Source: Phlegmacium glaucopus (lineage: Eukaryota; Basidiomycota; Agaricomycetes; Agaricales; Cortinariaceae). From it: a stretch of DNA of 17,094 bases. This document shows, one piece after another, positions 1 to 17,094 of the stretch (position 1 is its first letter; each line of letters begins with the position of its first letter). The stretch spans positions 299,428-316,521 of the forward strand of contig MU130617.1 of the NCBI GenBank assembly GCA_015039465.1, written 5' to 3'. A program made the position numbers and the translations under genes. The notes below the pieces were generated by a model. That model worked only from the letters and a program-made list of their open reading frames with translations. It made no database searches and was not told the origin of the DNA.

Positions 1-2
1 AA

Positions 3-1472
3 ATCAATGAAGCTTCACCTTCAGAAGATGAAGCGGCAGCTCAAGCGGCTCTACGCTCATTTCAAGGTAATAATTCCTTTCATTTGCAGCTTCAGCAACT
101 CATATATTATAGATGAAAACCTTAACGATGAGGTACTATATCATATCGTCACTCATTCCTTACTGATTTTTTTGTCCAGAATGATGCCATTGATGTGCTC
201 GAAGACCACTGTATGTGCAACCGTCCCATACATCCACCTCACCCTGAGGCCCTGGCAAATGCTGCTGCCCGCCAATCATATGGGCATCAACTCAAAGATG
301 ACGACCTCGAGGCCGATGAAAATGAAGATGATGATTCATCTACCCATCGGGCTTGTCACTATTCAAAGACACCAAGGGATGCAGAACCCAAACCAACAAC
401 CATGAATTACTACCCCCCAGGCTGGCAGACTATGCTGGAGATGGTGAAGAATAACATGAGAAGGCATGTAGCCCTTGTTAATGCCTTCCCACAAAGAGAC
501 AGAGACCTCAAGGAGGCAACTCTCATTCTCAACAATACAGTCACTGAATATCAAAGGATTGAAGGCAATGCTCTAGAGCCAGGTTGTTTCATACATCTTT
601 TTAACCCAGCAGTTATTGATCATCTGTTTTAGAATATTCCCCAGATTGAGATATGAGAATTCTGGTAGAATCTTACATTCCCATCATTCAACATCTACTA
701 ATTCCCTGCTTAGGTTTTCAATGAGCATTCGTCGTTTCGCCAGAAATTAAAAAAGGTTATTTGGGGCATCATGTTAGCAAAATATTCGAATCTACTTTGC
801 CCACCCGAATTTGAAGGAGGCAATCAACAAGAGGAGTACGACTTGGTGCAACAAGCGGTTCACAAATCACTAAAGGAAGGTCTCTTTCTTCGGGGCAGAG
901 AAGATGAAAATGTGCATTTTCTTTTGTTTCAGTACTTCTTTCTTACATTTCTTGCTACATTTGAAGGGCAAATGCAAAAACATTGCACATCCGGCAATAC
1001 CTGCTGTGATTCATGAGTTTTTCTATACCAATAAGGATTGTCTCGCAGCGCTCTACCACCAAGACTTCGAACACACCATCCCTGATTATGCCATTGCCCT
1101 AGTCATGACTTGCATAAGTACCTCTTTCTCATATCAAATGACCTCCACTAATGATTATATTATAGATTCAAAATTGCCTCGAAGAATACACTGACTACGG
1201 TTATAGAAAACCAATCACCTTAGACAGAGAAACATACAGAGTGGTAATGAAACATCATCTCCACCTGATTGATACACTGAAGGGCCATGCGTATCATGGA
1301 GCACGATATGAAGCTTGTCGCGCCAAATGGGCACGGAAGGGGATGTAAGAAAATTTCTTCGTCTTTAACTTATTAATTTAATTCATTGACCCTTATTTAC
1401 TTTATTAGGCAACTTCTGGAACAAGATGAAGCCCCAGTAGCTCGTTATGCTCCCGCGTTACAACTTGACTGA
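3..1472 (+). pseudogene. DUF6532-type protein gene, 5' partial, with one frame slip
   Basis: Function unknown. DUF6532 proteins are abundant in Agaricomycetes, often beside transposons. Best exons: 3-66, 113-132, 180-582, 633-664, 714-911, 967-1117, 1166-1344, 1409-1472, with introns of 46-64 bp and mostly matching phases. An acidic N-terminal part (DENLNDENDAIDVLEDHC across two junctions) precedes the family core: YYPPGWQTMLEMVK, VNAFPQRDRDLKEA, EYQRIEGNALEP, VFNEHSSFRQKLKKV, NIAHPAIPAVIHEFFY, IPDYAIALVMTCI, NCLEEYTDYGYRKPI and DTLKGHAYHGARYEACRAKW. The last exon ends LQLD then TGA at 1470-1472. Two oddities. Exons 6 and 7 do not join in phase; removing one A from the A4 run at about 1170-1173 restores it. 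In the 633-664 exon the codon at 647-649 is TGA, unless the acceptor is the weak GAG at 648-650. The start lies outside the window. Family assignment is from recognised motifs, without a search. Confidence 0.72.
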
Positions 1473-1700
1473 TAATTGATGTCAGTATGTTCTCTCTTCA
1501 AGTTATCCCTATTGTCTGTATAGTCCACCGACAAGTTTAGATGCAGGTCCTGTCAATATAACCTTCTTCTGAGTAGTTAACACCCTGCTTTATTGCAATG
1601 TCTAGTTACTTGTTTTATGTAGCTTCGGAACTCGGTACTTTAATACAATCAATAATGTTTCCAATTATTTTGTTATGCAAAGCTATCAGTATTCGGATAC

Positions 1701-1729
1701 AGTATATAAACACATTGGGTTTATATACT
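1701..1729. repeat. Perfect 11-bp inverted repeat (hairpin)
   Basis: AGTATATAAAC at 1701-1711 is the exact reverse complement of GTTTATATACT at 1719-1729, with a 7-base loop. It is embedded in TA-rich DNA, so chance formation is easier than in mixed sequence. Confidence 0.7.
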
Positions 1730-1806
1730 ATATATAGTCTATATATGACTATACCGAGCTTTATAGTACTAAGTAAAAGCCAGGTGTTTCTGGAGAATAA
1801 CAAGGT

Positions 1807-1955
1807 AAGCCTATATAGTAATGAGCCAAACCTATGTAGCACTCCATAGTAGCAAAGTAAGCCTATATAGTAATGAGCCAAGCCTATATAGTGCTCCATG
1901 ATAGCAAACTAAGCCTATATAGTAATGAGCTAACCCTATATAGTGCTTCATAGTA
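1807..1955. repeat. 52-bp tandem repeat, about three copies
   Basis: AAGCCTATATAGTAATGAG starts at 1807 (copy 1), 1859 (copy 2) and 1911 (copy 3), an exact 52-bp period, with scattered substitutions. Each unit contains two related halves sharing CCTATATAGT or CCTATGTAG, so the 52-mer probably arose from a shorter ancestor of about 25 bp. Confidence 0.85.
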
Positions 1956-1995
1956 CCGGGCAGAGCAAGGCTATTTCTGGACAGAAGTGATGTGA

Positions 1996-2064
1996 CACCG
2001 GCCAGTGCTGTAAATTAAAGAACCTTTTCTATGGTTCTATGACGCTGTCCAGCACTGTCTGGTG
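1996..2064. repeat. Nested imperfect inverted repeat
   Basis: CACCGGCCAGTGCTG (1996-2010) pairs with CAGCACTGTCTGGTG (2050-2064) at 13 of 15 positions. Inside it GAACC (2020-2024) pairs with GGTTC (2033-2037). The result is one long two-step hairpin. It could be a foldback element or the end of a small transposon. Confidence 0.6.
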
Positions 2065-2123
2065 CCAGCAAGCTGACCCCCAGTTTGCAGATGTAGATAC
2101 ATATGAACCAAAGGTTGAGGTAA

Positions 2124-2414
2124 ATGGGGAGGCCAAATGTGAATGATATGATGATGTCGCTGGAAGGGAATGATGGGTGGGTGTTGCGGAATTTTGAGTT
2201 GAGGCAGCTTGTCAGAGAGCTTGTGAGAGGAATGAATCTGCCTCAGAAGGAACTGAGATCTGGATATCGTAATAAAGATGAGAACAAGGATGGGAACACA
2301 CCTAGAGCCCATGCCCAAAATTCCCTTTCAACACGGCAAACACTGCAAAAAGAAGTACAGATACAGAAGGTCATCTGTGCCATTCAACATGGGGCCCACA
2401 AACCAGGCCATTGA
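2124..2414 (+). CDS. Unrecognised open frame, weak
   Basis: A 96-codon frame beginning ATGGGGAGG. Its middle is rich in charged residues and looks helical (ELRQLVRELVRGMNLPQKEL), followed by a polar segment (NKDENKDGNTPRAHAQNS). I recognise no family. No good splice sites extend it convincingly, and the opposite strand is also open over part of it. It may be one exon of a degraded accessory gene or a chance frame. Confidence 0.2.
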   Translation: MGRPNVNDMMMSLEGNDGWVLRNFELRQLVRELVRGMNLPQKELRSGYRNKDENKDGNTPRAHAQNSLSTRQTLQKEVQIQKVICAIQHGAHKPGH

Positions 2415-2898
2415 CAGGGTCAATCACAGATGACTATGAATCTACCAGATTCATGCCACGCACAATTGTGGACTTCGAAAGACACATCGCAGAGTGAGGG
2501 AGGAGACGAGAGGTGCAAGCAATGTTGCAACATGCATGTGGTTTTTTTAACCGTGGGAATACCATACGCCAGGCTCTGCCACTGCGATACGTGCTACACA
2601 AACTGTAGAGCTTTAGCATCCTTAATTTTATTCTGTAAATTGCCTCTGTTAATATCATAGAGTTGTTTTACATCCAGAATCCAAAGATCTTTACATCAAA
2701 TTTCGATGCAACAAACTGGTCTGCTACAGACTTGCTGCAGACCATTGCAGATTGATTGCAGATTTCGCATGCCCCATTATGGAATTAGTGTTCTAAACTC
2801 TCAGTGAGGCTTGGGACTTTCCAATGCTATACGCAGCTCACAGAACAAACAATTTGATTTGATTTGAGACTCGAGAGAGAACATCCACATCGCAACTA
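2415..2898. other. Intergenic, nothing recognised
   Basis: Short open frames on both strands overlap and none shows family motifs. GGTCTGC and GCAGACC form a 7-bp inverted repeat around 2719-2744. This is the 3' flank of the minus-strand gene ending at 2899. Confidence 0.4.
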
Positions 2899-4502
2899 CT
2901 ACATGCCTCTTCTGCCCTGAAGTACATTTAACAAGGCATTACCTGTCGAAAGCTGTGTCGGAACCTGTGGCTGATGCATGCTGTTGCTACTGCCCATACT
3001 AGTAGTGCCATGAGCCATAGTTGTACTAGGAGCCTGACTCAAAATCATGGTTGAACATGGTCCTGCGGTGTTTGATTGTGAGGCAGAATTGAACTGCTGG
3101 TTATCGAAAAGGATGGTCTCCTCCACATACCTAGACATAATATATGAGATTCAAGTAAAAAATCCTAGAACCAATGAAAGGACAACTCACGGTTTCCATA
3201 GTGGTCCAGCAAGGTCACTATCTCGCTCCTCAATTTGTTTTGCCAACCATTCATCCACGCGTGCCCAAAAGTCTTCTCTGTTGGGAACACAGCCCCCATC
3301 TCTGGTGCGCTTCTTGCCAGTGCTTGCCTCAGAAGACAAGCCATCATTCTTGATGTTCGAAAGGAGATGCTTGTTCTCGTATGCGAAGCAGCGCTAACCC
3401 AGAAAAAATAAATAACACTCACAACAAACACCAAGCTAAAGACTTGTATCCTTACCAGAAGTGCATTATGAATGATATAACCATTATTCACCTTCTCAGA
3501 GAGTGATCCTGGTCGATATTTATGCATTGAGTTGACAGTGAAGTCCTCAAGCGAACACTTTGAATTCCCAAATAAACTGTCTCGTATCTGAAGGAAGAGG
3601 TTACAATTAGGAAGTCATCAGAAACACTGAAATAAAGACAGATGTCTTGTCGAAAAGCATTTCTGACACCAGAGACAGTGCGTTTAACAGCACTGGTGAA
3701 TACAGTCTCTCTCACAGGTTGTCCAAAGACATTGAGCATGCGGTATTGCTCCGGTTTTTGCCTAATTTTTGCCTGTTACCAAGGATGAGAGATTTGAAGG
3801 CATAAATCACAAGGTTGGCTAAAACCCACTGAAACACCCAGATACAATGGTTTAAATGCAGTACGTGAATGGTGGTAGATTAGTTGTTGTGAAAGTTTCT
3901 GAATGTTCATCTAGTAGGAGGTTGGTTAAATATAAAGCAACAAACAGCAATAAATTATGGGACATACGGACTGTTCCCTGGTCAACTCAAATTTGGTATC
4001 GAGCCGGATCCCCAAGTCCTGGGCAACTGCTTGGGGCATGTCGTCATCAGTCCTTTTGCTGCGAAGGGAAAATGCAGCCGTAATTCAGTTCTCAGATTCA
4101 TATTGGAGGGCTTGCATCATGATGTGTACAGACCCATCTGCAACAGTGAGGCCGTCTCCAGCAGAAGTTACAACCTGGAGGAAACGAACATCAAAGAGAG
4201 TTCGTTTAACAGAATTCTAGTGTACCTACTTGGTGAAGCGCTTGGAGGTTGGTGATCTGGACTTCCGTTAACTTATACTGATGCCCTGCTGTTTCAACAA
4301 ACATTGGTGATATTTTGTTGACTGATCTGGACAGTCTTCCCGACTCAGGAGTGGATAAAAGCTGGTGGGTAGTGAAAGATGGTGAAGGTGAATTTGATCG
4401 AGAACGGGTCAATGAAAATTCGTCCAGAGGGGAAGAACTCTGGGCTGAAACACCTTCCCATGGACCGATAGCATATGCATTTGAAGCAGGTTGAGAGGTC
4501 AT
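2899..4502 (-). pseudogene. Spliced accessory gene of unnamed agaric family, interrupted
   Basis: Function unknown; it resembles uncharacterised mushroom proteins often found among transposons. Exons on the minus strand: 4230-4502, 3968-4174, about 3640-3828, 3456-3587, 3191-3393, 2899-3130. Introns where both ends are clear are 55-62 bp except the longer 3829-3967. The ATG at 4500-4502 opens a Ser-rich head (MTSQPASNAYAIGPW) ending YKLTEVQITNLQALHQ. Next come VVTSAGDGLTVADGSVHIMM, DLGIRLDTKFELTREQS, MLNVFGQPVRETVFTSAV, GNSKCSLEDFTVNSMHKY, REDFWARVDEWLAKQI and YVEETILFDNQQF, then a Ser/Gln/Thr-rich tail. Two lesions: TGA at 4085-4087 within an otherwise continuous frame (fits CGA-to-TGA), and a frame slip at the A5 run (plus-strand T5, 3766-3770) that one extra base repairs. 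The boundary near 3588-3640 is unclear. The product would be about 410 residues. Confidence 0.6.
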
Positions 4503-4966
4503 GCTTGAATGGTGCCAATATTTCAACTGGTGCAGTGCAACTTTCACATCTTATACTTTTTGAGAGTGGCAGTGCACAGTTTCCATCTGTTGACAGAGCA
4601 CACAAGGATCTAAACAACGTGTAGTCTCGCATCGCGTCGGTCATGGACAGCGCTGATGTAACTGCACAGAGGTTGTTGAGAAAAGGTGTATTTTCAAGAT
4701 TATAAATCTCTACTCAAAACAATCACTCAATCAATACTTTATACAATCTTAATAATGCAAGTTGGGTTTTCTAGAAAGTATAACCTTTCCAATATTTTGA
4801 ATTCACTTCAACTAAACACACACAACAACAACAATAATTTGGATCAATTAAAGGATGATCAAACTTGTAAAGTGGTTTTGCAATTTATGGCTTGCACCAA
4901 CAATCAGTAGAAGAATTCCCAAGACTTCTCTGATTGATTTACAATTTGTGTACACAAAAGTCCAAG

Positions 4967-5083
4967 ACTTTGTTACAACTTCAACACAATTGCATACACA
5001 AGAAGACTCAAACTTCTGCTATGACTTTAACACAATTGCATACACAAGAAGCCCTCTTGCTTCTGCTATGACTTTAACACAAC
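4967..5083. repeat. 46-47 bp tandem repeat, two-plus copies
   Basis: AACACAATTGCATACACAAG occurs at 4983 and again at 5029 (period 46). CTTCTGCTATGACTTTAACA occurs at 5013 and 5060 (period 47). The copies are partial and overlap, with substitutions between them. Confidence 0.75.
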
Positions 5084-5329
5084 AACAACTTTTACAACAA
5101 TTCAACAATTATTGCAACAAGTCAAACAACTCTGAGAAACTGATTTATTTTCAAGTCCACTACTCAAAGACAAGTGTTCTTGCTCAATGTCTAAGACAGT
5201 GAGCTGTACTAGGTTGCAAATGAGGGGGGGAAAGAAAGAATCCAATTTTCTGACTATTTACAAACCCTGGGAGGTATTTTATACATTTGAGATACTTAAA
5301 AATAGATAATGTCCAAAAATAGATATACT

Positions 5330-5480
5330 GGTTCCTGGTACCCTTACTTTGGTTCTGGCACCATGTGCACTCATTGTTCCTGGAAACATAGGGGTTGTTC
5401 TATTTTTAGCCCCATGTTCCTAATTTTAGGTAGTTTCCACCCCTCTTGATGGGAACTGTGCCTATTGTGCCTGGAAACAA
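5330..5480. repeat. Dispersed short motif GTTCCTGG and variants
   Basis: GGTTCCTGGTACC, GGTTCTGGCACC, TGTTCCTGGAAACA, TGTTCCTAA and TGTGCCTGGAAACA follow each other within 150 bp. Clustered short motifs of this kind are common near transposon ends. No element boundary was identified. Confidence 0.4.
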
Positions 5481-5668
5481 TCTTTATGATTGTTCAGCAC
5501 TCCCCCTATCCTTAATCATCATGATTCCCACACAATCACATGGTTCCACTATCTTGGTTATTCTGCTTCCACTGTTGCTAGGGCACCACACTTCCCCTGA
5601 ATATTTATTAATAATATTCTGTTGCTCCAAAATCACACCCCATGACATTTGCTAACCCAATATTGTTT

Positions 5669-5974
5669 ATTTAACTTTTCCTGTGCAAAGTCTATAAGGA
5701 TATTCATGGATTTATTGGTTTTAATCCAGACATGCAATTTGTAGTGTAACAAATGATAGTCTATTGACCACACTTATTAACTATATGCATTTAAGTCACA
5801 CAGTAATAGGTCTAATCAGCAGTTGTAGGGTAAACAACTCTGATTCCCTTGTCTATTATCAGTTGTATTAACCAGTTATTGGTGCATTAATTAATATTTA
5901 TGCTGAAATAATAGATAAAAATTGCAAAAACCATGCTTATGCAGATTTAAATCATATCAGCGCGTTATTTGAAA
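5669..5974. repeat. 306-bp direct repeat, copy R1
   Basis: Identical to 9235-9540 at 304 of 306 positions with no indels (constant offset 3566). The differences are A5687 versus C9253 and A5871 versus G9437. It is non-coding and AT-rich. The copy ends directly in the A26 run 5972-5997, and no similarity to R2's flank continues beyond it. Confidence 0.95.
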
Positions 5975-5997
5975 AAAAAAAAAAAAAAAAAAAAAAA
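5972..5997. repeat. A26 homopolymer at the inner edge of R1
   Basis: Twenty-six consecutive A, followed by CGA and T8. The other inner edge of the repeated pair (9210-9235) is also A26. Equal runs at both junctions look like an insertion or assembly signature. Confidence 0.95.
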
Positions 5998-6030
5998 CGA
6001 TTTTTTTTGTATCATTTAAATTACCCATCC

Positions 6031-6240
6031 TTCATTTTGCATACAAGCACTCCAACGGAGAACTTTCACCACGGCCAACAATTATTTTCTACACTCGTTC
6101 GACTTATCAAGTATCCATGAGACTATCATTCGCAGCCTCTCACAGGCTCTGATTGACGCCGACGATCCTAACGCCATCTGCCACCTCGTTCTCTCCTGGA
6201 ACGGTTCCAGTTGTCACTGCATCGAAGGAATGGACCGTAT
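6031..6240 (+). CDS. Open, coding-looking stretch upstream of the membrane gene
   Basis: One frame stays open for about 70 codons and reads naturally (FDLSSIHETIIRSLSQALI, DADDPNAICHLVLSWNGSS, CHCIEGMDRM), with no ATG near its beginning, soon after the A26/T8 sequence. It could be an exon of a gene whose 5' end is missing. A 1-base slip at about 6241 would join it to FPDEPPVEQALFQCT, and from there across the 6287-6349 intron. I recognise no family. Confidence 0.25.
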
Positions 6241-6345
6241 GATTTCCTGACGAGCCTCCAGTTGAACAAGCTTTATTCCAATGTACATGTAAGTACTTGA
6301 CCGCAACCAATCAACAAGACCACGCAACACATCCCTTCCACATTC

Positions 6346-7065
6346 ATGCAGCTCCTCGCCACCTCCAGACTTCATTCTCTCGCGTACACCATGACCTCAA
6401 CCCGAGTGTTTATTCCACAGTTCTATCGCTCGTTCATTCCCCATGACTCCCTTCATTTTCACAGGAACATCCTCAACTCAACTCACGCACCACTCTCGAC
6501 CATCCCAGCAAACAGATCTTTACTGAGCTCATTCAAACCGTTGGACGTCCGATCGCGACTCAACATGTCGCCATACGATCTCAAAAGTCTTGTGTTTGGT
6601 CGCGGCGTTCGTTGTTTAAAACATATGAATGGAGTACGCGTACTTACGGTAAGCCAGCCCCATCTAGGATCGTCCATTGGTTCTTGATAGTTTTTTTAGC
6701 AGTGTACAATTAATCGCAGAACATTAACATTTACCATTGCCTTTGCGGCGTCTTTTCTTCTATATCAATACTTGATGCCAGTAGTCACAGCGTTCTACGC
6801 TTTTCTGACTGCTATCCGCTACCTCAATGCCAAGTTAGTGGCAGCAGATCAATTTCTGGCCATAGCTACAGAAGAGCCAGCTGTAAGTTTCAATCTATTC
6901 CATAGTGATTTGAGCTAATATCTTCATCAGCGACACAAACTTCTCTACAATTTCACGTTCCTCGCTGCGCTAACCCTCATCTACTTGCTCAGACTATATT
7001 TTGCAATGTTAGCGCTACTCACGTGCACCCTCATTTATCTGCGATACATTTATTTTAGTTTGTAA
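6346..7065 (+). CDS. Small multi-pass membrane protein, three exons
   Basis: Not recognised. Model: exons 6346-6648, 6700-6882, 6931-7065; both introns (51 and 48 bp) are phase 0 with GTAAGC/GTAAGT donors, giving about 206 residues ending TAA. The first exon is Arg/Ser/His-rich with almost no acidic residues (MQLLATSRLHSLAYTMTSTR), as in a mitochondrial presequence. The last two exons are strongly hydrophobic: LTFTIAFAASFLLYQYLM, PVVTAFYAFLTAI, NFTFLAALTLIYLLRLYF and LALLTCTLIYLRYIYF, with a polar loop AADQFLAIATEEPARHK between. The last two exons are well supported. Exon 1 is less sure: another frame there also reads well (KQIFTELIQTVGRPIATQ) but needs a TGA read-through and cannot be joined in phase. 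Confidence 0.5.
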
Positions 7066-7097
7066 CTACCCTAGAAGTAGTAAAATCCTTTCTTGAT

Positions 7098-7116
7098 ATA
7101 AGAGTTTCACTCTTAT
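7098..7116 (+). other. 3'-UTR hairpin downstream of the membrane gene
   Basis: ATAAGAGT and ACTCTTAT form a perfect 8-bp stem with a 3-base loop, 32 bp after the stop codon. It may be a transcript-end structure. The role is inferred from position only. Confidence 0.4.
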
Positions 7117-7439
7117 GTTTCTTGTTGTAAATGTCTAAAATAAATATCAAATCCTACGAAAAATATGGATATATCTACTGTAGACTGCCTACACAGTGTT
7201 GAGAACATTGGTGACATCAAGAGTTGTAAATTCCTTTGAAAATTTATGACGTTTCAAGTTGGAATTTTTTCAAAAGTTTTTGTTACATATTTGTCCATAA
7301 AAGTCTACATTAATTGGCGGAATTTCCCCGATGCCAAAAGTGGTAAATTACCACAGTCCCGAAAAACGACACTTTCTGTCAGAATTATCCCATTCCACCC
7401 TTTGGGGTTGCTTTTTCCCACGCTCCTGGTCTCACAGTG
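7117..7439. other. Unrecognised DNA fused to the broken end of the KDZ gene
   Basis: No coding motif. GTGGTAA-A-TTACCAC at 7340-7354 is a perfect 7-bp inverted repeat, and CACAG-TGCT-CTGTG spans the fusion point at 7433-7446. This sequence replaces the downstream part of the KDZ-associated gene, whose normal continuation is found in mirrored form at 16218 onward. Confidence 0.45.
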
Positions 7440-9037
7440 CTCTGTGGGATACACCTTGTCCAAGAAGTTCAAGATATTTGTTGGTGATTCAGATTTTGCA
7501 AATTTGGCCCAAGCAATAACTGCACCACAGGGTGCACAGATTGTTTCCACACAATAAAAATGGGGAGGACTAAAGTAGTGGCTTCAAAGTGGTTCTGGGG
7601 CATTTTCATCATGTGGTTGTACATTTCCTCTGGTTGCAGGATTCCATGGCAGATTTTCACTAGGTCTTTGTAACATATGTTGAACACCTGTAAGACTTGA
7701 ATGGCTATGGTGATGAGTGTGTTTGTCCCATTGAATTCCGTGTTGAGAGCATGCTTGGGTTGGTGCCACTTTGTTATTTTGGCACCCTTTCACATGACAA
7801 CATGGTCCATATTCATGCTCATGAAGAGTACAAAATACACCTCCACGTGCATTATCCAGATCCTCAATGCAGTTTTCATATGCACAATGCTAGAAATAAA
7901 TTCAATTCTGAGAAAAGATAATATCAACTTAATACTTACTGTTGTGCCCATTACAATACCATCAAGTACAACCATGTTTACAGTTCTACCATCTACTTCC
8001 ATATGATCTGATGCTGAGTTTCTGTGAAGTGTAGCTGATACCTCAGGAACATTCTGAGCCAATAAGGTGTTATGATTGCTTATAAGTGGAGGAACAACTC
8101 TGTTGTCATCCTCACCAACAATTCCAGCAGGATCATTGTGTGCAGTAGGATTTTGTTGTGGAAGAGTATCTGAAGTTCTTTTGTATGGCTGGGTACATTC
8201 TGAACATGCATGTCCATCAGCTGGCTTAATACGACCCTGATCACCAAGTTTAACAAAAGCCTGTTCTGTAATTTGATTTATGTCCAGGTTATCCTTTAGT
8301 TCTAGATGTACTCCATATACTGCAGCTATTTTTCTTGTAGACTCCTGGACAAATGCATTCCAAACTTGTTGCCTACTAATGATAGTAGATGATTCTGTGC
8401 CACTTTCTCCAAAACTATTGTTCCAGAATTCAGTATAGGCTGCAGCAGAGGCATGAAAGCTTTGCATGGCTTTTATAACAGCACTTGAAAAGATTCTATC
8501 AACCCAAAGACTTTGTCCCACTTTCAAATGTGTAGCAGAGTTCAGATAGACTTTGGTAGCAAGATCATTGTTTCCAGGAATGTGTTCATGATCTGCTGAA
8601 TAAGTTGTGTTGCAGGTTGTACATACCCCAGTCAGCACTGGGATATTTTGGTAGATTGTTATGCCCTTAATAAGGGTTACACTGGGAATATCTCTAACTC
8701 TTGTATTTTTCAGTAGTCCACGTGGTTCACATCTTGTATCTTCACAAGTCAAAGAGGTAGGGCAAATTACCAAGACTGGCTGGATAGCTTTATGAGAAAC
8801 AGGAAGCAATTTCTTGTCAAATTTCCCATTTTTGTGATATGGATTTAAGTTCAAGATCTGAGCAAAGGCACCAAGTTTCAATGCAAGAGAAGTAACAATA
8901 TCATTATCTTCAATGTCTTTAGGCTTTTCAGACTTTTTAAATAAATCCAAAGTCTGATGCTCTAAATGTGACTGTAGAGTTTGTGCTAGACATTTAATCC
9001 ATCCAGATGAGGGCACTTTTCTTCTCTCCAGAGCATG
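7440..9037 (-). pseudogene. KDZ transposase-associated CxC5/CxC6 protein, truncated copy 1
   Basis: CxC5 and CxC6 are cysteine clusters named for their association with fungal Kyakuja-Dileera-Zisupton transposases. Exon 7940-9037 (TAA in frame just upstream at 9038-9040, no ATG) starts around ERRKVPSSGWIKCL. It carries a CxC5-like cluster (ICPTSLTCEDTRCEPRG, then GVCTTCNTTYSADHEH) and a CxC6-like start (HACSECTQPYK, VDGRTVNMVVLDG). The intron 7890-7939 (50 bp, GTAAGT..TAG, phase 0) leads into HCAYENCIEDLDNARGGVFC, VKGCQNNKVAPTQACSQHG and RPSENLPWNPATRGNVQPHD. The codon 7584-7586 is TGA; the frame then continues unbroken through FYCVETICAPCGAVIAW and SPTNILNFLDKVYPTE. After 7440 homology stops abruptly. 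The mirrored copy has CGA (Arg) at the TGA position. Lost from this copy: the predicted catalytic half. Confidence 0.85.
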
Positions 9038-9068
9038 TTAGGGCAACTGCAACGCTGACTTAGTCAAG

Positions 9069-9168
9069 CTAGCAGGGGATCCAAAGTTAATAATATTTCA
9101 GAAAAGATATCTACAAGTGACTTACCTAGCAGGGGATCCAAAGAGGAAAGGATGGGGATCCCTGCTAG
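9069..9168. repeat. Three copies of CTAGCAGGGGATCC, two direct and one inverted
   Basis: CTAGCAGGGGATCCAAAG occurs at 9069-9086 and 9126-9143. GGATCCCTGCTAG at 9156-9168 is its inverted form, lacking one G, and makes a hairpin with the second copy (16-base loop). It lies between the truncated 5' end of the KDZ pseudogene and the A26 run, so it may be the remnant end of a small element. Confidence 0.8.
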
Positions 9169-9209
9169 CTGGGGGTATTTAAGTACTAATATGGCCATAA
9201 CGGAGATAT

Positions 9210-9235
9210 AAAAAAAAAAAAAAAAAAAAAAAAAA
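9210..9235. repeat. A26 homopolymer at the inner edge of R2
   Basis: Twenty-six A's directly precede the second copy of the 306-bp repeat, mirroring the arrangement after R1 at 5972-5997. Confidence 0.95.
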
Positions 9236-9540
9236 TTTAACTTTTCCTGTGCCAAGTCTATAAGGATATTCATGGATTTATTGGTTTTAATCCAGACATG
9301 CAATTTGTAGTGTAACAAATGATAGTCTATTGACCACACTTATTAACTATATGCATTTAAGTCACACAGTAATAGGTCTAATCAGCAGTTGTAGGGTAAA
9401 CAACTCTGATTCCCTTGTCTATTATCAGTTGTATTAGCCAGTTATTGGTGCATTAATTAATATTTATGCTGAAATAATAGATAAAAATTGCAAAAACCAT
9501 GCTTATGCAGATTTAAATCATATCAGCGCGTTATTTGAAA
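9235..9540. repeat. 306-bp direct repeat, copy R2
   Basis: Second copy of the sequence at 5669-5974 (304/306 identity). Its left edge is the A26 run. Its right edge passes without interruption into TAGTGAGGGAGTATAAGAGA, so R2 probably keeps the original right-hand context and R1 the original left-hand context. Confidence 0.95.
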
Positions 9541-9551
9541 TAGTGAGGGAG

Positions 9552-9716
9552 TATAAGAGATAGGGGGAGGATCAGCTGAGACACAAGTAACACCCCTGTC
9601 CAAATCCGGATGTCACGTCAGCCCAACCGCCAATCTTCACCAACGACACACACCTGCCACCGCAAGAGAACACCACCAAGTCACTACAATAACAATTTGA
9701 GGCCTCAAGTGTGAGT
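9552..9716 (+). promoter_or_regulatory. Possible TATA promoter and leader with splice donor
   Basis: TATAAGAG at 9552-9559 is followed by a CA-rich, ATG-poor leader and an excellent intron donor (GTGAGT, 9711-9716). The arrangement suits a transcript that runs right toward the small gene at 10033. No transcription evidence is available. Confidence 0.35.
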
Positions 9717-9746
9717 ACTTAGATATGTTTACTTCTTATGCTCTCA

Positions 9747-9899
9747 CTGTAACAGTCCAGAACACTCAGTTGATGTAGTGAATCAACTGACTATTTATAC
9801 AGTACCTGTAACAGTCCAGAACACTGAGGTACATAAGTAAATAGAAATAATGAGGTAATGAAATAAGACATACCTCAGTTGATGTAGTGAATCAACTGA
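9747..9899. repeat. Two copies of a 44-bp unit with hairpin; second copy carries a 50-bp insertion
   Basis: The unit (9747-9790) is CTGTAACAGTCCAGAACACT plus CAGTTGAT-GTAGTGA-ATCAACTG, the latter a perfect hairpin. The second copy is split: 9806-9825 and 9876-9899, separated by a 50-bp segment (9826-9875) that begins GAGGTACATA and ends AGACATACCT. With the following C, its ends form a GAGGTA/TACCTC inverted repeat. Confidence 0.85.
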
Positions 9900-10032
9900 G
9901 GAGAAAAGAAAGAATTGAGACAAAATTATATATATACACCCCCTACAATATAGGGGTTTGGTATCCAGCGGATGTAGCACCCATTCCACAAGTGATGAGC
10001 ACATGTGACTCATTACAACACTCACCTTTAAA

Positions 10033-10551
10033 ATGGTATGTGCAGATTGTTTGGACCAGGTGGAAGCCTCGATAGCCAGACCACTGGGACCCAGTGGTAT
10101 GAAGCAGTTACAGGGTCTGACAGATGTTTCAGTGAGTACCTCGAAGACGGAACTCCATTGATCGGTGTGTTCCTTTGCTCATGTGACATTTCCTGTTCAT
10201 GACCACCTCTTAGAATCCCAGAAACATGCTATTGAGTACAACCAACAACATGAGCTTCAACTGATGGACACAGAAGCTCACACCTCTCCAATAAAGAAAG
10301 AATCCGATGAACACCCCCGGCCTTCCTTGTTGCTTAATCCTACTGTGATTCATTCACTGGTTGATGCAAAAATCAAGGAAATCATTGGACTTTGTACACA
10401 GAGGCTTGAAGGTGATCTTCAGGTGGTCACAGCTTGGAGGGATGCAGCATTCAGGGAACTTGCAGCTGAGAGGGAATGGGTTAGGATCTTGGAGTTGACA
10501 CTTAGAAAAAATGAGATCCCTTTGCCGAAGGACACACTTGAAAATTTGTAG
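10033..10551 (+). CDS. Small two-exon protein of unknown function
   Basis: Model: exon 10033-10135, intron 10136-10213 (78 bp, GTACCT..TAG, phase 1), exon 10214-10551; 146 residues, stop TAG at 10549. The ATG has a good fungal context (TTTAAAATGG). The start reads MVCADCLDQVEASIARPLG with a CxxC pair. The second half looks helical and may form a coiled coil (VDAKIKEIIGLCTQRLEGDL, then AAFRELAAEREWVRILELTL), ending KDTLENL. A donor four bases earlier (GTGAGT) is closer to consensus but breaks the frame. The stop lies 6 bp from the convergent stop of the transposase-like gene, so it may be the second ORF of that element. No family recognised. Confidence 0.5.
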
Positions 10552-10557
10552 TCTTGT

Positions 10558-13500
10558 TTATTCTCGTAATGCTGATAGTAGTTGTTCTGAATCTTCTCTG
10601 CCTCGCCCCCTGCCTTGACCACCAACCATCAATTGCGACGCCATTGCCCTCCCCTGAGCACGACCCCGCCCACGCACTATGAAATTCAGAAGGTTTGAAG
10701 TGCCAGTTGCAATTTTACGAGCATCAATAGTCCTGGCAGCACTTTCCTGAACCACATTAAGTGCATCAAGTTCCATTGAAGGGACACGATGTTTTTGGAC
10801 ATGCACCACATCTCGCATCTGGGCAGTATTAAGAATGAGGTCGTTCAGGCTCCCCAGATGTTGTATGATTGAATGGGTGCTCTGAGTCAACATACACTCT
10901 TGGAAGATTTGGCGGGAACCCGTAGCACCACATTTATGATGATAGCAGTTCTGTTGTGTGTTGACTGTGCAAAGAAGGTCCTAAATCCAATGTTTAAAAC
11001 TACTATTGAGAGGAGGCAGTTACGGTGAACTCACTTTCAAAGGCACTAAGAACCACTCGCCTTTTGGGACTAAATAGGGCATTTGATATTTTGGACAAGG
11101 TTGCAAGGATTCGAAAACTTCAATAAGCACTCCGTCTGGCTCTTGTGCTGCATAACATTCGGACCCAACCTTCTGAATAATCTCAACAACTTTGGCAATA
11201 ACTGTTTCATGCTCAATAGCCTGCGAGCGCACAATGACATGTTGGCCCACTCTGCACTTGTCGCAATTATGAAGGTTAAGATAGTCATTTGTTTGATAAA
11301 GTGGTGGTGGGAAAGTGCTTGATGGTTCAACAAAAGGGAATTTTTGACCGGTAAGTGTTTGCATGAATTGTTGAGGGGGTTTTTTATCATGGTGACAGTA
11401 GCCTTGGAACGTCAAGAGTGAGGACAGTCACAAAGATGAAAACATTGGGTTCATACCGGGTGATGATTTAATTGTTCTCGTTGGGATATTGAGTCCAAGG
11501 TATGAAGTTGCCGTGCTTGATAGTGACATTAAGGCTTGGGGCCTTGGGCCTATTGTCTGCCACATTGAGTGTGATGTTGCCCAGATGCCGGGGGGTGGCT
11601 GAGTGGTGAGAAAGATTGGAGCCTTTGGAAAGAACCCACCACTAAGGAGGTGGCGGATGCAGTTGCCTTGAGCAAATGCAAGCGCAATATCCCGAGAAGG
11701 TGCTTGTCGATTGCTGTGGACACTTTTTGCTCGAATAACGGCATTGAAAGATTCAAAAGCCTCTGTTGCAAATAATATAGCCGGGCCAAAACGGCGTATA
11801 TGCTCCACCAAGTGAAGAAAATATGAAATTTTGGTTTGTTGAACCAACCAGTTGTCCAGCGGGCAGTTCGGAGAAGGAAGTCTGTAATTTCATGTTCAAG
11901 AAGGACCTGGAAGTAGTAAAATAAGAGAATTCATCAACAAAGATACAAAGGGTTAAGAGGAAGAGTGTACCATATACTCTTTGAGATCGTTGATAACAGG
12001 TTGCCAAATAAGTGGTATGAGCTTTGAAAGGGCCACCCATGCATTGAAAACCTCATCAGAAACCATGTCATATATAACAAAAGGAGCTGCCTGTGAGATG
12101 TGATGAAAATCTCGTCCAGTCAGCGATCCAGCATAGTTGACAAGAGTGTCCCCTGGTAGAGGAGATATTCCTAGACCAGACACATCAAGGCTTGACAATC
12201 TTTGCGCAAGAAGGGCCTTCCGGTCATCCTTGCCCTTTAGCTGATTCTGGATGAGATCTCGCCAAAAATATTTGACAAATCCAAGCAGAACAACGTGAAG
12301 AACTTCCACGGGTGTGTCTTGATGTGGATCAAGGCCTAGCAATTTCAGAGTTCAGTTACTGATGAAAAAATTTGACAAGAGAAAGAACAGGTGCCTTCAA
12401 TTCGCCACACAGGACTTGTTATATTGCTAGGAAGGTTGTGCACAGCAGTTTCAAGGGCATCTTGTTTCTCTTTGTGACCACATTTTCCTGCATATGACGC
12501 AAAAAGTTTGTCCAGGAAGGACTCTTGTATTGGGTCCTTAATCCCCTTCTTGGTTCGAAAGTTCTTACATGCAGTTTTGTTTCCCAGTGTTTTTGCTTGG
12601 CTGAGGTAGTTTTCAAGGGTTTCCTGGGTCTCTGCCTTCCATCGAAGTTTGCCAACCTGAGGGACATTATATGGGATGATGAACTTGGAACCTAAACCAT
12701 AATACACACCTTCATGAACAACATTACCCTTGTGACCATGGAACTTAGGCTTTCAACAAACTTGCCTTTCTTCTTTTTGGGTGGTACATTTGGCGTCTTC
12801 CCTGGTGTCAAAGATTGTAGATCAGGTTCTCCTTCATGCACATCACTTTCTTCACCTTGACTCATTTCACCATCAGACAATCTTGCACTATTGACATCAC
12901 TTTCACCTCCATCATTGTCGTGCCTGGTAAAGGTGGGTTCTGCTAGAGCATCTGTGCCTTTCACCCAGCATGCTCGACAGAACATCTTTCCACGCATCCC
13001 AATATGACATGCAAACTCACTTTGCATAGGATTGTCACCGAGAAGTGCAAGTACTACCGGAAATATGAGGACTGGTTTGTTGGTTTCACAGTCCATGCTC
13101 CATTGGTCTTCACTTTTCTATTCATAATATGAGTATTTGCAACAAATTCAATAAATAATTAAGGACAGACTCTATTTGATCCAGAACACCATCAAGCATT
13201 TCCAGTGGTGGAGCTTTGTTGGACGTACAAAGAAAATGCACATTGTACTCCTTTGCTGCTTGTTCTCGAGGCAGTCCAGCTAGAGTAAACAAATAGCTAT
13301 TATGTTTGTTCCACTTCTTGGATGTGTTTCCAGAGGTATCATCACAGTACATCCAAAGCAGAAGGCTTACAACATGCTGCCCATGCGATAGCACCCACCA
13401 ACAGTTACCTTCTTCTGGATTGGTGTGCAACCATGGTGAAAGTGTCTCTGTATCACCGATTTTTCGCACACCTGATGGAAGAAGATCAGTAATATGACGT

Positions 13501-15019
13501 AGAGCAGATGAATGACCTCACCAAGAATTTGCGAAGGATGAGGGAATTTATGGAACAGGTGGTCCTTCGCAAACCCTGGCAAATTTCTCAGGAGCTGAGA
13601 TGCTGGAACTTCAATTGGGGTATCCTCTCGAACACACCAACCGTGGGTACCATCAACGGTGACCTGTTCCATTGGCCAAGCAATTGCATATAGCATCTTG
13701 CCTCGAGTGAACCACCGATTTGGAAGGCATGCACGCCCATCAACAAGAAGAGCTGGTTCGAAGATGTAGTAGTCGCCACTTTCTATTCGGATCATGGGTG
13801 TCGTATCTTCAGAAGGGAGTTCATGTAGCCATTTTGCAGCCTGGCGAGCCTCGCCAAGTAATTGCCCTGAATCTTCGGGGTAGAAGTGAAGATGAGGGCG
13901 GACACGGGGATTTGCCATTTCCTGAAAAGCCAGGTTTCAAATATGAGATATTAAACAGAATAGAGCCAGTTATAGGGTCTCACCTGTGCCAGGATTTGTG
14001 CAATATTGTTCACAAAATACCGATGTCCCAGAATTCCTTCGTATCCGACAGTTTCTATTCCGCAAAGATTTTGAATTGATTTATTGAGTGCTTTCATTGT
14101 GTCGAGGCCCGGAACGTAATCTACTTCGTTTACCTGAAGAAGCCACAGGAATAAATCAAGTTGTTTCTGTGAAAAAACGGAACGAGGAAGGTGCATCAGG
14201 ATGTTGAGGGTGCATGTCTAAAACAGTCTTATTTTAGTATTTGCAGCAACCAAGCGGCTTTCCAACAACATATGATTCTGTCCTGCCATGGGTACCACTG
14301 CCGGGCTGTGGAATCATCAGTGGTGTGATTATGAGGTCGCTTTTTTGGTGGTTGTTGTGCAAAGAATTCATCCTCTGATTCGGGATCTGTGAAAAAATGG
14401 GAAACGCAGTGATGGAAGAAAATCAGTGTAACTTACCCAGGTTGGTTTCAGCTTCAGTTTCACTAAGGTCTGACCTCTCATTCTCGTCTTCCTCACTCAA
14501 ATCTCCATTGAGGAAGTTGAGAGTGGCTTGCGCAATACGAGAAGCTGCTTTCTTCCATGGATCTTCATCAGGAACCAGCTCATCTTGGAGATTCCAAGAA
14601 ATTCCGGTGAGTGTTCCGGGAGATGGAGAGTGAGTTTCCGGCTGGACAAGGCCAGGAAAATCCGGTGGGTAATGCGGGTTGTTTGGTTGGGCTGTGATGG
14701 ACCTAAGGAGGGCACGGACACCATCTTCCCGAATGGCCTCGTTGATATTTGTGGGAAAAGACGAAGAGGGCAGAAGATGAGAAGTCGGCGGTGGTGTGGC
14801 ACCAGAACTGCTGGAAATGGGAGCCGGTCTCTGGTATGTCTTCAAGTTTTGCTGATGAGTGTAGGTATTTTCGTGATCTCTACAATTGGATGCGACCTTC
14901 TCTCGACAGTCTCCGCAAACAAGGCAAGAATAAAGGGAAGTACCACCCTTATCATGACTCTTCCAGTCTAAATTTAGACCTGCAATCAACGCCGGGCAGT
15001 ATATCAGCGACACAGCCAC
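10558..15019 (-). pseudogene. Plavaka/CACTA-like transposase gene, 11 exons, lightly damaged
   Basis: Probable DDE-type transposase of the mushroom Plavaka group (CACTA-like); the name is from recalled family motifs. Exons: 14437-15019, 14270-14386, 13984-14217, 13522-13921, 13171-13471, 12710-13117, 12395-12656, 11971-12335, 11457-11906, 11035-11402, 10558-10980; introns 50-64 bp. In order: a Cys/His finger (CLVCGDCREKVASNCRDHEN), acidic linker, MHLPRSVFSQKQLDLFLWLL, NPRVRPHLHFYPED, first acidic motif MYCDDTSGNTSKKWNKHNS (13338-13343), second motif LGDNPMQSEFACHIG (about 13034) with CRACW, LDPHQDTPVEVLHVVLLGF, late motif ILFATEAFESFNAVIRAKS, and a tail NCYHHKCGATGSRQ..LNTAQMRD with Arg/Gly repeats. 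Single-base deletions at 13093-13094 and 11818-11821, a one-base conflict at the exon 2/3 joint, and a GC donor at 12394. No in-frame nonsense codon found. The start codon is unclear. Confidence 0.78.
12336..12394 (-). other. Non-canonical GC-AG intron in the transposase gene
   Basis: The junction WRIE-G-LDPHQD requires splicing GAAG|GCACCT...TTGCTAG|GCCTTG, 59 bp, phase 1. The donor is GC rather than GT. The other nine introns of the gene were placed at GT-AG sites. It may be a tolerated GC-AG intron or a T-to-C mutation of the donor. Confidence 0.6.
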
Positions 15020-15302
15020 TCACACTTGGGATCAGGCTGAAAGGGCATTTTGTGTCAGCGGAATGTCAGACCAAGTTCAAGTCCCTCGAGGTTTGAACCT
15101 TGCTCAAGTTGGTGGTTTAAATTTTTCTTCAGTCTCAAAATATCTGTACCCGACCTCACCAGCGGTTGAAAGCTAACCCACGATCGTGAAATTGAACTGC
15201 GGTCACTCCTAACTTGAACACAATTTGAACTCAGATTTCAAACCCAACACAATTCTCGAAACTCAAACCTGACCCATTCAAGGCCCTGGCTGTGTAGTAT
15301 TA
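15020..15302. other. 5' flank of the transposase gene with clustered TTGAAC motifs
   Basis: GTTCAA at 15075 and TTGAAC at 15093, 15192, 15214 and 15225: five copies in 156 bp, in both orientations, upstream of the transposase. CACTA-type elements carry subterminal motif clusters bound by their transposase, so this is a candidate. I could not find paired terminal inverted repeats at the two ends. Confidence 0.35.
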
Positions 15303-15686
15303 CAAGTCTCAACTTTTATTCTAAAGTTGAGATGTGAGCACAAGGGGGATACTAGGCATATGTGGAACAAGGGCATAAGTCATATGGTATGATGAGGGAG
15401 GGATATGGATAAGGAAGTGTGATTGTCCATATGAATCGAGCATAAGGGTTAGAACAAATATGGTAGGCATAAAGAAAATAAACATGTCCAACGTTTCATG
15501 TATGCATAATGCCAGTGGGCAGTCCGTACCTGCGATTGTAACAACAATTGGAACCACGTAAATTCACAAATAATCACAGCCCTCTAAAACAGAGTGACAC
15601 GCAACATGCTCCTTCGTACCTGCCACGACGAGCTTCACAAAACCAATTTCCTCAAATGCTCTCAAGTCAGTCGCTCGACGCAACCC
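15303..15686. other. Intergenic, nothing recognised
   Basis: Short overlapping frames on both strands without family motifs. No repeats worth naming. Confidence 0.4.
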
Positions 15687-15905
15687 TTAAAAGTATAAAT
15701 CACACTCCTGTGCCCAAGTGTCCAATATAATCTTGATTATCTTCAGATTCGGAAACATGTGCCTTAATCTATGAAGGAGATTCGGAGATTCAAAGAATCC
15801 CAACGAGGACATTTGATCTTCGAAGGGGCCTTGATAGGGCGTGAACTTGAACCAACATTCATGTAGAGCGTTTGGCGCAGGCAGCGCGGACAACATTTTC
15901 CACAT
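15687..15905 (-). CDS. Possible 3' exon of an F-box/leucine-rich type gene
   Basis: A 72-codon C-terminal frame from MWKMLSALPAPNALHECW through FESPNLLHRLRHMFPNLK to IKIILDTWAQE, ending at TAA (15687-15689). A pyrimidine-rich acceptor (CTTCTCTCAG) lies just upstream of the ATG, so this is probably an internal or last exon whose upstream part is missing. The HMFPNLKIIKI pattern resembles leucine-rich repeats in mushroom F-box-like proteins, but this rests on a short stretch. Confidence 0.28.
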   Translation of the reverse strand: MWKMLSALPAPNALHECWFKFTPYQGPFEDQMSSLGFFESPNLLHRLRHMFPNLKIIKIILDTWAQECDLYF

Positions 15906-15963
15906 AGCTGAGAGAAGCAGGGGTGATTTGTACAGTACTTTACAGTGCCCCACGCTTCCGAAC

Positions 15964-16027
15964 GGAATCCGAGTGGAGTCCGAGCATTCCGACTGGATTC
16001 CCAGTGGAGTCCAAGTGGAGTCCAAGT
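15964..16027. repeat. 11-bp minisatellite, six units
   Basis: Units GGAATCCGAGT, GGAGTCCGAGC, ATTCCGACT, GGATTCCCAGT, GGAGTCCAAGT, GGAGTCCAAGT follow head to tail. The array ends exactly where the mirrored block begins. The array at 16804-17034 is the same repeat spelled backwards. Confidence 0.9.
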
Positions 16028-16730
16028 TCCTTTACATGTTGGTGTACTACTTTTACGGGGTCTTGGTGAAGCTTCGGTGATGAAATCAGGAGGGGCAAAA
16101 ATAACACACCTTTGTTAGACACGTGGGACACCACGTCAATAACGAACCCGGTTTAAACGTTTTAGACTTAGTGGTTGTTTATAGAACTTGAAGAACCTGT
16201 TCCACATAGGGTGTCTCCTCAGAGCCGGACTGATATATACGTAACTGTTCCGAACAGAACACGAGTCCTGACGATAGTCGTTACCTAGAACCTTACTCAC
16301 CGTCTTTTGATCAGCGAAGTAACAACTACGTATGGTAATATAGTTAGTAGCGTGTTTACTAAAAGAAACGGCCTTCAAAACATTGGGACCCGGTAATCTA
16401 CCGAGACGGGGATTAGAACAACAATACCGGAACCTGTCTTTTTTATTCGGAATAAACTTTGTCCGTAAGTTATGAGTCCATACAAATAAAGATAATACTC
16501 AAATATAATTAATTAACACCGAATAAATCCGTACACTTGTTAACTTACGTACCGACCCACCGAAACTGAGGTAGGGCTTTGCGTACTGTGGTCCGTTGAA
16601 ATTAACCAAAAACGTATGTTACGAGAAAATGGTGTGAGTTATACAAGAACTCTCTGTTTCTGTCTTCTTCACCTTTTTCCTCTTCTTCCTAGTCCTCCCT
16701 CTACTGAGACTGTGTCTCTTACTTCTAACT
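16028..16730. pseudogene. Mirror-image 3' half of a KDZ-associated gene, copy 2
   Basis: Neither strand read normally gives a product. Complementing left to right without reversing gives an open, spliced gene end: exon 16028-16478, intron 16479-16529 (51 bp, GTATGT..TAG), exon 16530-16730 ending TGA (67 codons). Motifs in order: GNVQPHDENAPEPLRSHYF, RFYCVETICAPCGAVIAW, NILNFLDKVYPTEESRPDY, ICIDKACLVLRTAISNGSW, FIVDAYHYINHRTNDFLC, NPGPLDGSAPNLVVM, ACEQLNAWLGGFDSI, KRMTPGNFNWFLHTMLFY and an acidic tail GDDSDTENED. The Asp residues of ICIDKAC and IVDAYHY and the Glu of ACEQLNAW are plausible DDE residues (inference). Bases 16028-16217 match 7629-7440 read in the opposite direction at 188 of 190 positions, without indels. 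No stop or frameshift is present. As written it cannot be expressed. Confidence 0.93.
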
Positions 16731-16803
16731 CAATGTCCATACTATAACATGATATTTCATCTGGTAACATTGTCTCGGTTTATAAGGAACTTTACAAATA
16801 TTC
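16731..16803. other. Mirrored 3' flank of KDZ copy 2
   Basis: AT-rich sequence after the mirrored stop codon and before the mirrored minisatellite. Read in the corrected direction it is simply the 3' flank of the gene. No other feature was seen. Confidence 0.6.
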
Positions 16804-17034
16804 TACAATGACTCTAAGGTGAGTCTGAGGTGAACCTTAGGTGAATCTTAGGTGACCTTAGGTGAGCCTAGGTAAACCTTAGGTGAAGCCTTAGGTGACT
16901 CTCAGGTGAGTCTGAGACCTTAGGTGAGCCTTAGGTGAGCCTTAGGTGATTCTCAGGTGAGCCTGAGATAAACCTTAGGTGAGTCTGAGATGAGCCTGAG
17001 GTGAGCCTGAGACAAGTCTTAGATGAATCACTGA
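16804..17034. repeat. Minisatellite in mirror image
   Basis: Repeats of about 10-12 bp of the type AGGTGAGCCTG / AGGTGAACCTT. Spelled backwards they become GTCCGAGTGGA / TTCCAAGTGGA, the same repeat as 15964-16027. Units vary between GAGCCT, GAACCT and GAGTCT; backwards these are TCCGAG, TCCAAG and TCTGAG, i.e. CpG, CpA and TpG versions of one site. Confidence 0.85.
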
Positions 17035-17068
17035 ACCTGAGGTTCGTCTCAGGCTCACCTCAGGCTCA
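16991..17068. repeat. Foldback: 23-bp perfect inverted repeat at the window end
   Basis: 16991-17013 (TGAGCCTGAGGTGAGCCTGA plus GAC) is the exact reverse complement of 17046-17068. In the loop, GAACC-TGA-GGTTC (17033-17045) forms a second hairpin. The minisatellite therefore flips strand about 60 bp before the window ends. String reversal does not affect this self-complementarity. Confidence 0.85.
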
Positions 17069-17094
17069 CCTGAGGTAAGCCTTAGGTACTAAGG

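What the first reader, a model, noticed from the sequence alone, without database searches (positions are those of the whole stretch)
16028..17094. A 1067-bp terminal block is a mirror image (string reversal, not reverse complement) of normal DNA
Complementing 16028 onward without reversing yields an intact KDZ-associated gene end: catalytic-like motifs, a perfect GT-AG intron, a 67-codon last exon and a stop. Its first 190 bases, read backwards, match the same-strand sequence 7440-7629 with 2 mismatches and no indels. The ordinary reverse complement does not match. No known replication, repair or transposition process makes a parallel-polarity copy, so the likely cause is a reverse-without-complement (or complement-without-reverse) step in assembly, gap filling or file handling. 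If reads really span it, it would be unprecedented.
Basis: seen in the sequence. Interest (0 to 1): 0.97.

Follow-up and report, generated by a model that had tools for sequence, protein, structure and literature searches.

The report
Gap-edge DNA written backwards in assembly

Summary
In detail: window 16028-17094 is string-reversed, not reverse-complemented, DNA. The window stops where a run of more than 18 kb of N begins. Read backwards in place, the block continues the bases before it exactly: the flank matches a normal transposon copy (L004) down to base 2745 and the reversed block goes on from 2744. So this is an in-place reversal, not a mirrored copy inserted there. It is not unique. 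Of 18 other places in the genome that match the block as written, 18 lie in mirror-polarity blocks. Of these 19 blocks, window included, 17 touch an N run, one ends at a run of 25 A and one lies 336 bases from an N run. Runs of exactly 25 A number 157 on the written strand and 1 on the other (23 A: 1 and 1; 24 A: 0 and 1), as artificial gap markers would. Best explanation: gap-extension patches were inserted backwards during long-read gap filling. The in-place reversal and its tie to gaps are shown; the program (PBJelly is the main suspect) is inferred. No biological novelty, but a systematic data error.

The parts
16028..17094 (-). Block with letter order reversed in place: 3' end of a KDZ-associated (CxC5) transposon gene and the 11-base repeat array behind it. 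Its complement, read left to right, is the gene sense; read backwards it is the gene on the minus strand. The last base touches an N run.
15933..16027 (-). Normal-polarity start of the same element copy (11-base repeat array), continued base for base by 17094, 17093 ... when the block is read backwards
   Evidence: L004 2839-2745 for the flank, 2744-1672 for the reversed block; L006 547-641 and 642-1693
7440..7629 (-). Normal-polarity piece of another copy of the gene, the mirror partner named in the finding
   Evidence: 2 mismatches in 190
7790..9016 (-). Open frame of 408 aa with a CxC5 domain (cysteine cluster associated with KDZ transposases), normal polarity
   Evidence: PF18718, E 2.3e-27
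5972..5997 (+). Run of 26 A, likely a 25-A linker (former 25-N gap) plus one A of its own
   Evidence: one-stranded excess of exact 25-A runs
9210..9235 (+). Second run of 26 A, likely the same kind of linker

Best explanation
Window 16028-17094 is the tail of an ordinary KDZ-associated transposon gene copy whose letters stand in reversed order, in place and without complementing, at the edge of an assembly gap, and a gap-filling step of the assembly is the likely cause. Shown: the block has mirror polarity; read backwards in place it continues the element without a missing or extra base; it touches a run of N; and 18 other as-written matches in this genome lie in blocks of the same kind, nearly all touching N runs. 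Inferred: a long-read gap filler extended contig ends into gaps and the extensions were written backwards, either by reversing correctly oriented patches without complementing them or by complementing opposite-strand patches without reversing them; both give the same letters. Also inferred: the 25-A runs are 25-N minimum gaps turned into A, which points to PBJelly or a step around it. The program and the faulty step are not shown.
For: In-place reversal: flank and reversed block meet base for base in the window (against L004 and L006), in L029 (492|493 of L017) and in L019 (4776|4777 of L018); within one base in L017; and inside a tandem array, 6 to 35 bases apart, in L013. In L022 the reversed block restores a gene interrupted by a 517-base repeat, 161 bases and the same repeat inverted, with the 15 bases TATGTTTGCATTGAC on both sides, as a terminal-inverted-repeat insertion with a target duplication would look. 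Siting: the stretch that matches the block as written is in a mirror segment in 18 of 18 fetched places, with borders off by up to 64 bases; 17 of 19 blocks touch N. Polarity control: 0 of 39 tiles of 400 bases in window 1-15600 score below zero. Exact 25-A runs: 157 on the written strand, 1 on the other; 23 A: 1 and 1; 24 A: 0 and 1. PBJelly defines a gap as 25 or more N and adds flank extensions to gaps it cannot close (PMC3504050, passages); JGI hybrid assemblies of mycorrhizal fungi used ALLPATHS-LG with PBJelly patching (PMC7550596, one passage).
Against: No reads, assembly record or organism name were available. Not every gap edge is mirrored: of 15 edges not chosen by the query, 4 are clearly mirrored, 6 are normal and 5 are weak or too short. 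In L023, 336 normal bases lie between the N run and the mirrored block, which I cannot explain. Why 25 N should turn into A while long N runs stayed N is unexplained. PBJelly patches in one benchmark were 88.6-95.2% accurate on simulated reads from three species (PMC8848313, passages), while this block is 97.5% identical to another element copy, so later polishing would be needed. My paper searches found no report of such a fault in PBJelly (listings).
Confidence: 0.94

Rival explanations
1. The letters were reversed by a later file-handling step (for example a scaffolding, polishing or submission script that handled patch pieces), not by the gap filler itself.
For: The product is the same; 25 N turned into A shows that some step handled patches apart from ordinary gaps (inference).
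Against: Block ends coincide with gap edges and 25-A linkers, which a gap filler would know, but so could a script that applied patches.
Confidence: 0.35
2. Real mirror DNA: an unknown process copied a strand with parallel polarity into the chromosome, and the mirrored element then spread and diverged.
For: Mirrored matches range from 100% to 67% identity, as old and young copies would.
Against: A mirrored copy has no reason to join its flank base for base only when reversed in place, nor to stop at N runs in 17 of 19 cases. Diverged mirrored pieces match diverged normal elements when reversed, which fits separate reversals of normal copies.
Confidence: 0.002
3. The block was complemented in place, or is a mirrored copy of 7440-7629, rather than being reversed in place.
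For: The complement reads as gene sense from left to right, and 7440-7629 matches.
Against: Complemented in place, base 16028 would have to follow 16027, but the base that fits there is 17094. The block matches other copies over all 1,067 bases, the 7440 copy over 190 only.
Confidence: 0.01
4. A chance or low-complexity mirror match, or an ordinary inverted repeat misread by the first reader.
For: The block's repeat array contains inverted matches within itself.
Against: 188 of 190 bases match in coding-like sequence, and no 12-base word matches as reverse complement; the block has 74 local matches reversed and 0 as written to the normal-polarity set.
Confidence: 0.001

Closest known systems
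Flank-extension patches at gap edges made by long-read gap fillers such as PBJelly (PMC3504050, passages read)
   Same: Sequence added at contig ends beside a gap that could not be closed; 25 bases as the smallest gap; variable patch length.
   Different: Here the letters are in reversed order without complement, and 25-base gaps appear as A; neither is described in the passages I read.
Mirror repeats (recalled: H-DNA-forming purine-pyrimidine tracts)
   Same: Same-strand reversal symmetry.
   Different: Those are short, simple tracts; this is 1,067 bases of complex gene and repeat sequence beside a gap.
KDZ-associated transposon genes with cysteine clusters (Pfam CxC5, PF18718)
   Same: The sequence, once read backwards, is the end of such a gene copy.
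   Different: Only the letter order in the file; nothing about the gene itself is unusual.

Membership tests
Reversed gap-edge patch (assembly artefact) | Block touches a gap | tested here: met
   17094 is the last base before an N run of more than 18 kb
Reversed gap-edge patch (assembly artefact) | Reading the block backwards in place restores continuity with the flank | tested here: met
   2745|2744 of L004 and 641|642 of L006
Reversed gap-edge patch (assembly artefact) | Other mirrored blocks in the same assembly also lie at gaps | tested here: met
   17 of 19 touch N, one ends at 25 A, one lies 336 bases from N
Reversed gap-edge patch (assembly artefact) | Reads contradict the written order | not testable with these tools
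   no reads held
PBJelly output in particular | 25-base minimum gaps | tested here: inconclusive
   157 exact 25-A runs on the written strand against 1 on the other; that they were N is inferred
PBJelly output in particular | Assembly record names the program | not testable with these tools
   organism and record unknown; paper search on 259 scaffolds found nothing
Ordinary inverted repeat | Reverse complement matches the partner | tested here: not met
   0 shared 12-base words
KDZ-associated transposon gene | CxC5 domain in the matching normal gene | tested here: met
   PF18718 at 7790-9016, E 2.3e-27; no Pfam hit in the block's own stretch as read from L004

The most novel reading that the evidence does not exclude
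A gap-filling pipeline has been writing patches backwards unnoticed, and many public genomes built with it carry stretches of mirror DNA at gap edges, some annotated as orphan genes and unclassified repeats; a polarity scan of short words would find them all from sequence alone.
Probability: 0.4. Interest if true: 0.55.

Novelty: not a real feature. Interest (0 to 1): 0.33.

Why it matters
It is not biology but a systematic error: one 1-kb query from one transposon family led to 19 mirrored blocks in this genome, so the true number is likely larger. Such blocks would yield false orphan genes, false repeats and transposon copies that seem broken, and the real sequence at those gap edges can be read by reversing the letters. 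A simple 5-mer polarity score finds the blocks without reads and could be run on any assembly.

Tried and rejected
Rejected: real mirror DNA, in-place complement, a mirrored copy of 7440-7629, and a chance or inverted-repeat match (see rivals). Results that first looked contrary: five of the tested blocks also had as-written matches. One search listed them for the 19 query-matched blocks: those of L023 and L029 fall on L018 39-870, which is itself a mirrored gap edge; those of L019 and L025 are short and lie at the inner end of the block, where the scan had set its border 84 bases (L019) and likely about 180 bases (L025) too far. The fifth, L022 1-2118 (3 as-written hits), is not a query-matched block and was not looked into.

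One paper search gave one paper on F-box genes, not read.

Full report
Claim and check. The finding says that 16028-17094 is a mirror image of normal DNA. It is. Its first 190 bases, read backwards, match 7440-7629 with 2 mismatches, and the block shares no 12-base word with 1-16027 as written or as reverse complement. The other long mirror matches in the window are poly-A (25 longest listed). The complement of the block holds a 156-residue stop-free stretch, an intron-like GT...AG stretch and a short last exon with a stop; the normal copy L004 has the same layout.

Place. The window is C219:299428-316521 of a genome held as 60.5 Mb in 259 records. The record is 431,567 bases long, and the base after the window starts a run of N that fills the rest of L009 and all of L010, more than 18 kb. 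The block is thus the last stretch before a gap.

In-place reversal. A mirrored copy dropped into the chromosome would have an arbitrary border. Here the flank 15933-16027 matches the normal copy L004 from 2839 down to 2745, and the block, read from its gap side backwards, matches L004 from 2744 down to 1672 at 97.5%; against L006 the two meet at 641|642. So the base that belongs after 16027 is 17094. The same base-exact seam is found in L029 (492|493 of L017) and L019 (4776|4777 of L018). In L017 the two sides meet within one base. In L013 they meet inside the repeat array, 6 bases apart against one copy and 35 against another. The other blocks were not resolved to the base; for L014 and L015 the copy tried matched only the block, not the flank.

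Genome-wide. The block as written was searched in the genome. Besides the window the listed matches fall at 18 places, from 100% down to 67% identity; the search scores only its best candidates, so this is a lower bound. All 18 were fetched. A two-state scan for 5-mer polarity, with the tested locus left out of training, puts the matching stretch in a mirror segment in 18 of 18, with borders off by up to 64 bases, and calls the side away from the gap normal. The match in L030 is short, repeat-array only and known. Of the 19 blocks, window included, 17 touch an N run; L022 ends at 25 A; in L023 336 normal bases lie between block and N run. Lengths run from 250 to 4,123 bases by the scan.

Controls. 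None of 39 tiles of 400 bases in window 1-15600 scores below zero. L002-L008, seven normal copies, score normal throughout, but they resemble one another and so help train one another. Against a set of sequences with the tested blocks masked, all 19 blocks find matches when reversed; 15 find none as written. The as-written matches of the other 4 fall on a mirrored edge that was not masked (L023, L029) or at the block's inner border, which the scan had set too far out (L019, L025).

Edges not chosen by the query. Searches show 15: clearly mirrored 4 (L014 right, L018 left, L020 right, L031 right); normal 6 (L003, L017 right, L023, L028 right, L031 left, L044); weak or short 5 (L013 right, L016 left, L021 left, L024 right, L027 left). 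Hence not all edges are mirrored. That fits patches at some edges only, or a fault that hits only patches from one strand; I cannot tell which.

L022 as a test. A mirrored block (4415-5723) stands here between normal DNA. Read backwards in place it gives a gene interrupted by a 517-base repeat, 161 bases and the same repeat inverted, with TATGTTTGCATTGAC on both sides; the gene resumes where it left off (overlap of 19 bases against L007, L003 and L004). This is how an insertion with long inverted ends and a target duplication looks. The block ends at 25 A (5724-5748).

25-A runs. Runs of exactly 25 A number 157 on the written strand and 1 on the other; exactly 23: 1 and 1; exactly 24: 0 and 1. 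Natural poly-A has no preference for the strand that is written, so most of these are artificial. PBJelly defines a gap as 25 or more N and adds flank extensions to gaps that it cannot close (PMC3504050, passages). JGI's hybrid mycorrhizal assemblies were patched with PBJelly (PMC7550596, one passage); whether this genome is among them I do not know. Of six plus-strand A-run loci that I looked at, two (L041, L043) have mirror-polarity DNA beside the run; the other four are normal, mixed or unclear, and one of these (L033) is a 32-A run.

Verdict. The sequence is the tail of an ordinary KDZ-associated gene copy. The feature is not biology; what is worth reporting is that the error is systematic and detectable from sequence alone.

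Noticed in passing
window 5669-5974 and 9235-9540, with A runs at 5972-5997 and 9210-9235: The same 306-base sequence stands outside both A runs, and 5998-9209 lies between them: likely two overlapping contig ends with a separate 3.2-kb piece placed between. The 5400-5971 stretch belongs to a high-copy element (at least 40 matches of about 99%).
   Followed up: partly
L022 3898-4414 and 5046-5562: A 517-base repeat with an inverted partner interrupts a KDZ-like gene and is flanked by a 15-base duplication; visible only when the mirrored block is read backwards.
   Followed up: partly
L023 1303-1638: 336 bases of normal polarity between an N run and a 4.1-kb mirrored block.
   Followed up: no
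C219:390230-393118 (L031 4230-5000 and L022 1-2118): A further mirrored stretch of about 2.9 kb on the right of an N run, not found by the query.
   Followed up: partly
L045 around 1501-1525: The bases on both sides of the 25-A run also occur close together at window 4650-4700 in the opposite order, as if two overlapping contig ends had been left unmerged (seen by eye).
   Followed up: no
window 1801-1955 and 4978-5131: Tandem repeats of 52, 46 and 20 bases.
   Followed up: no
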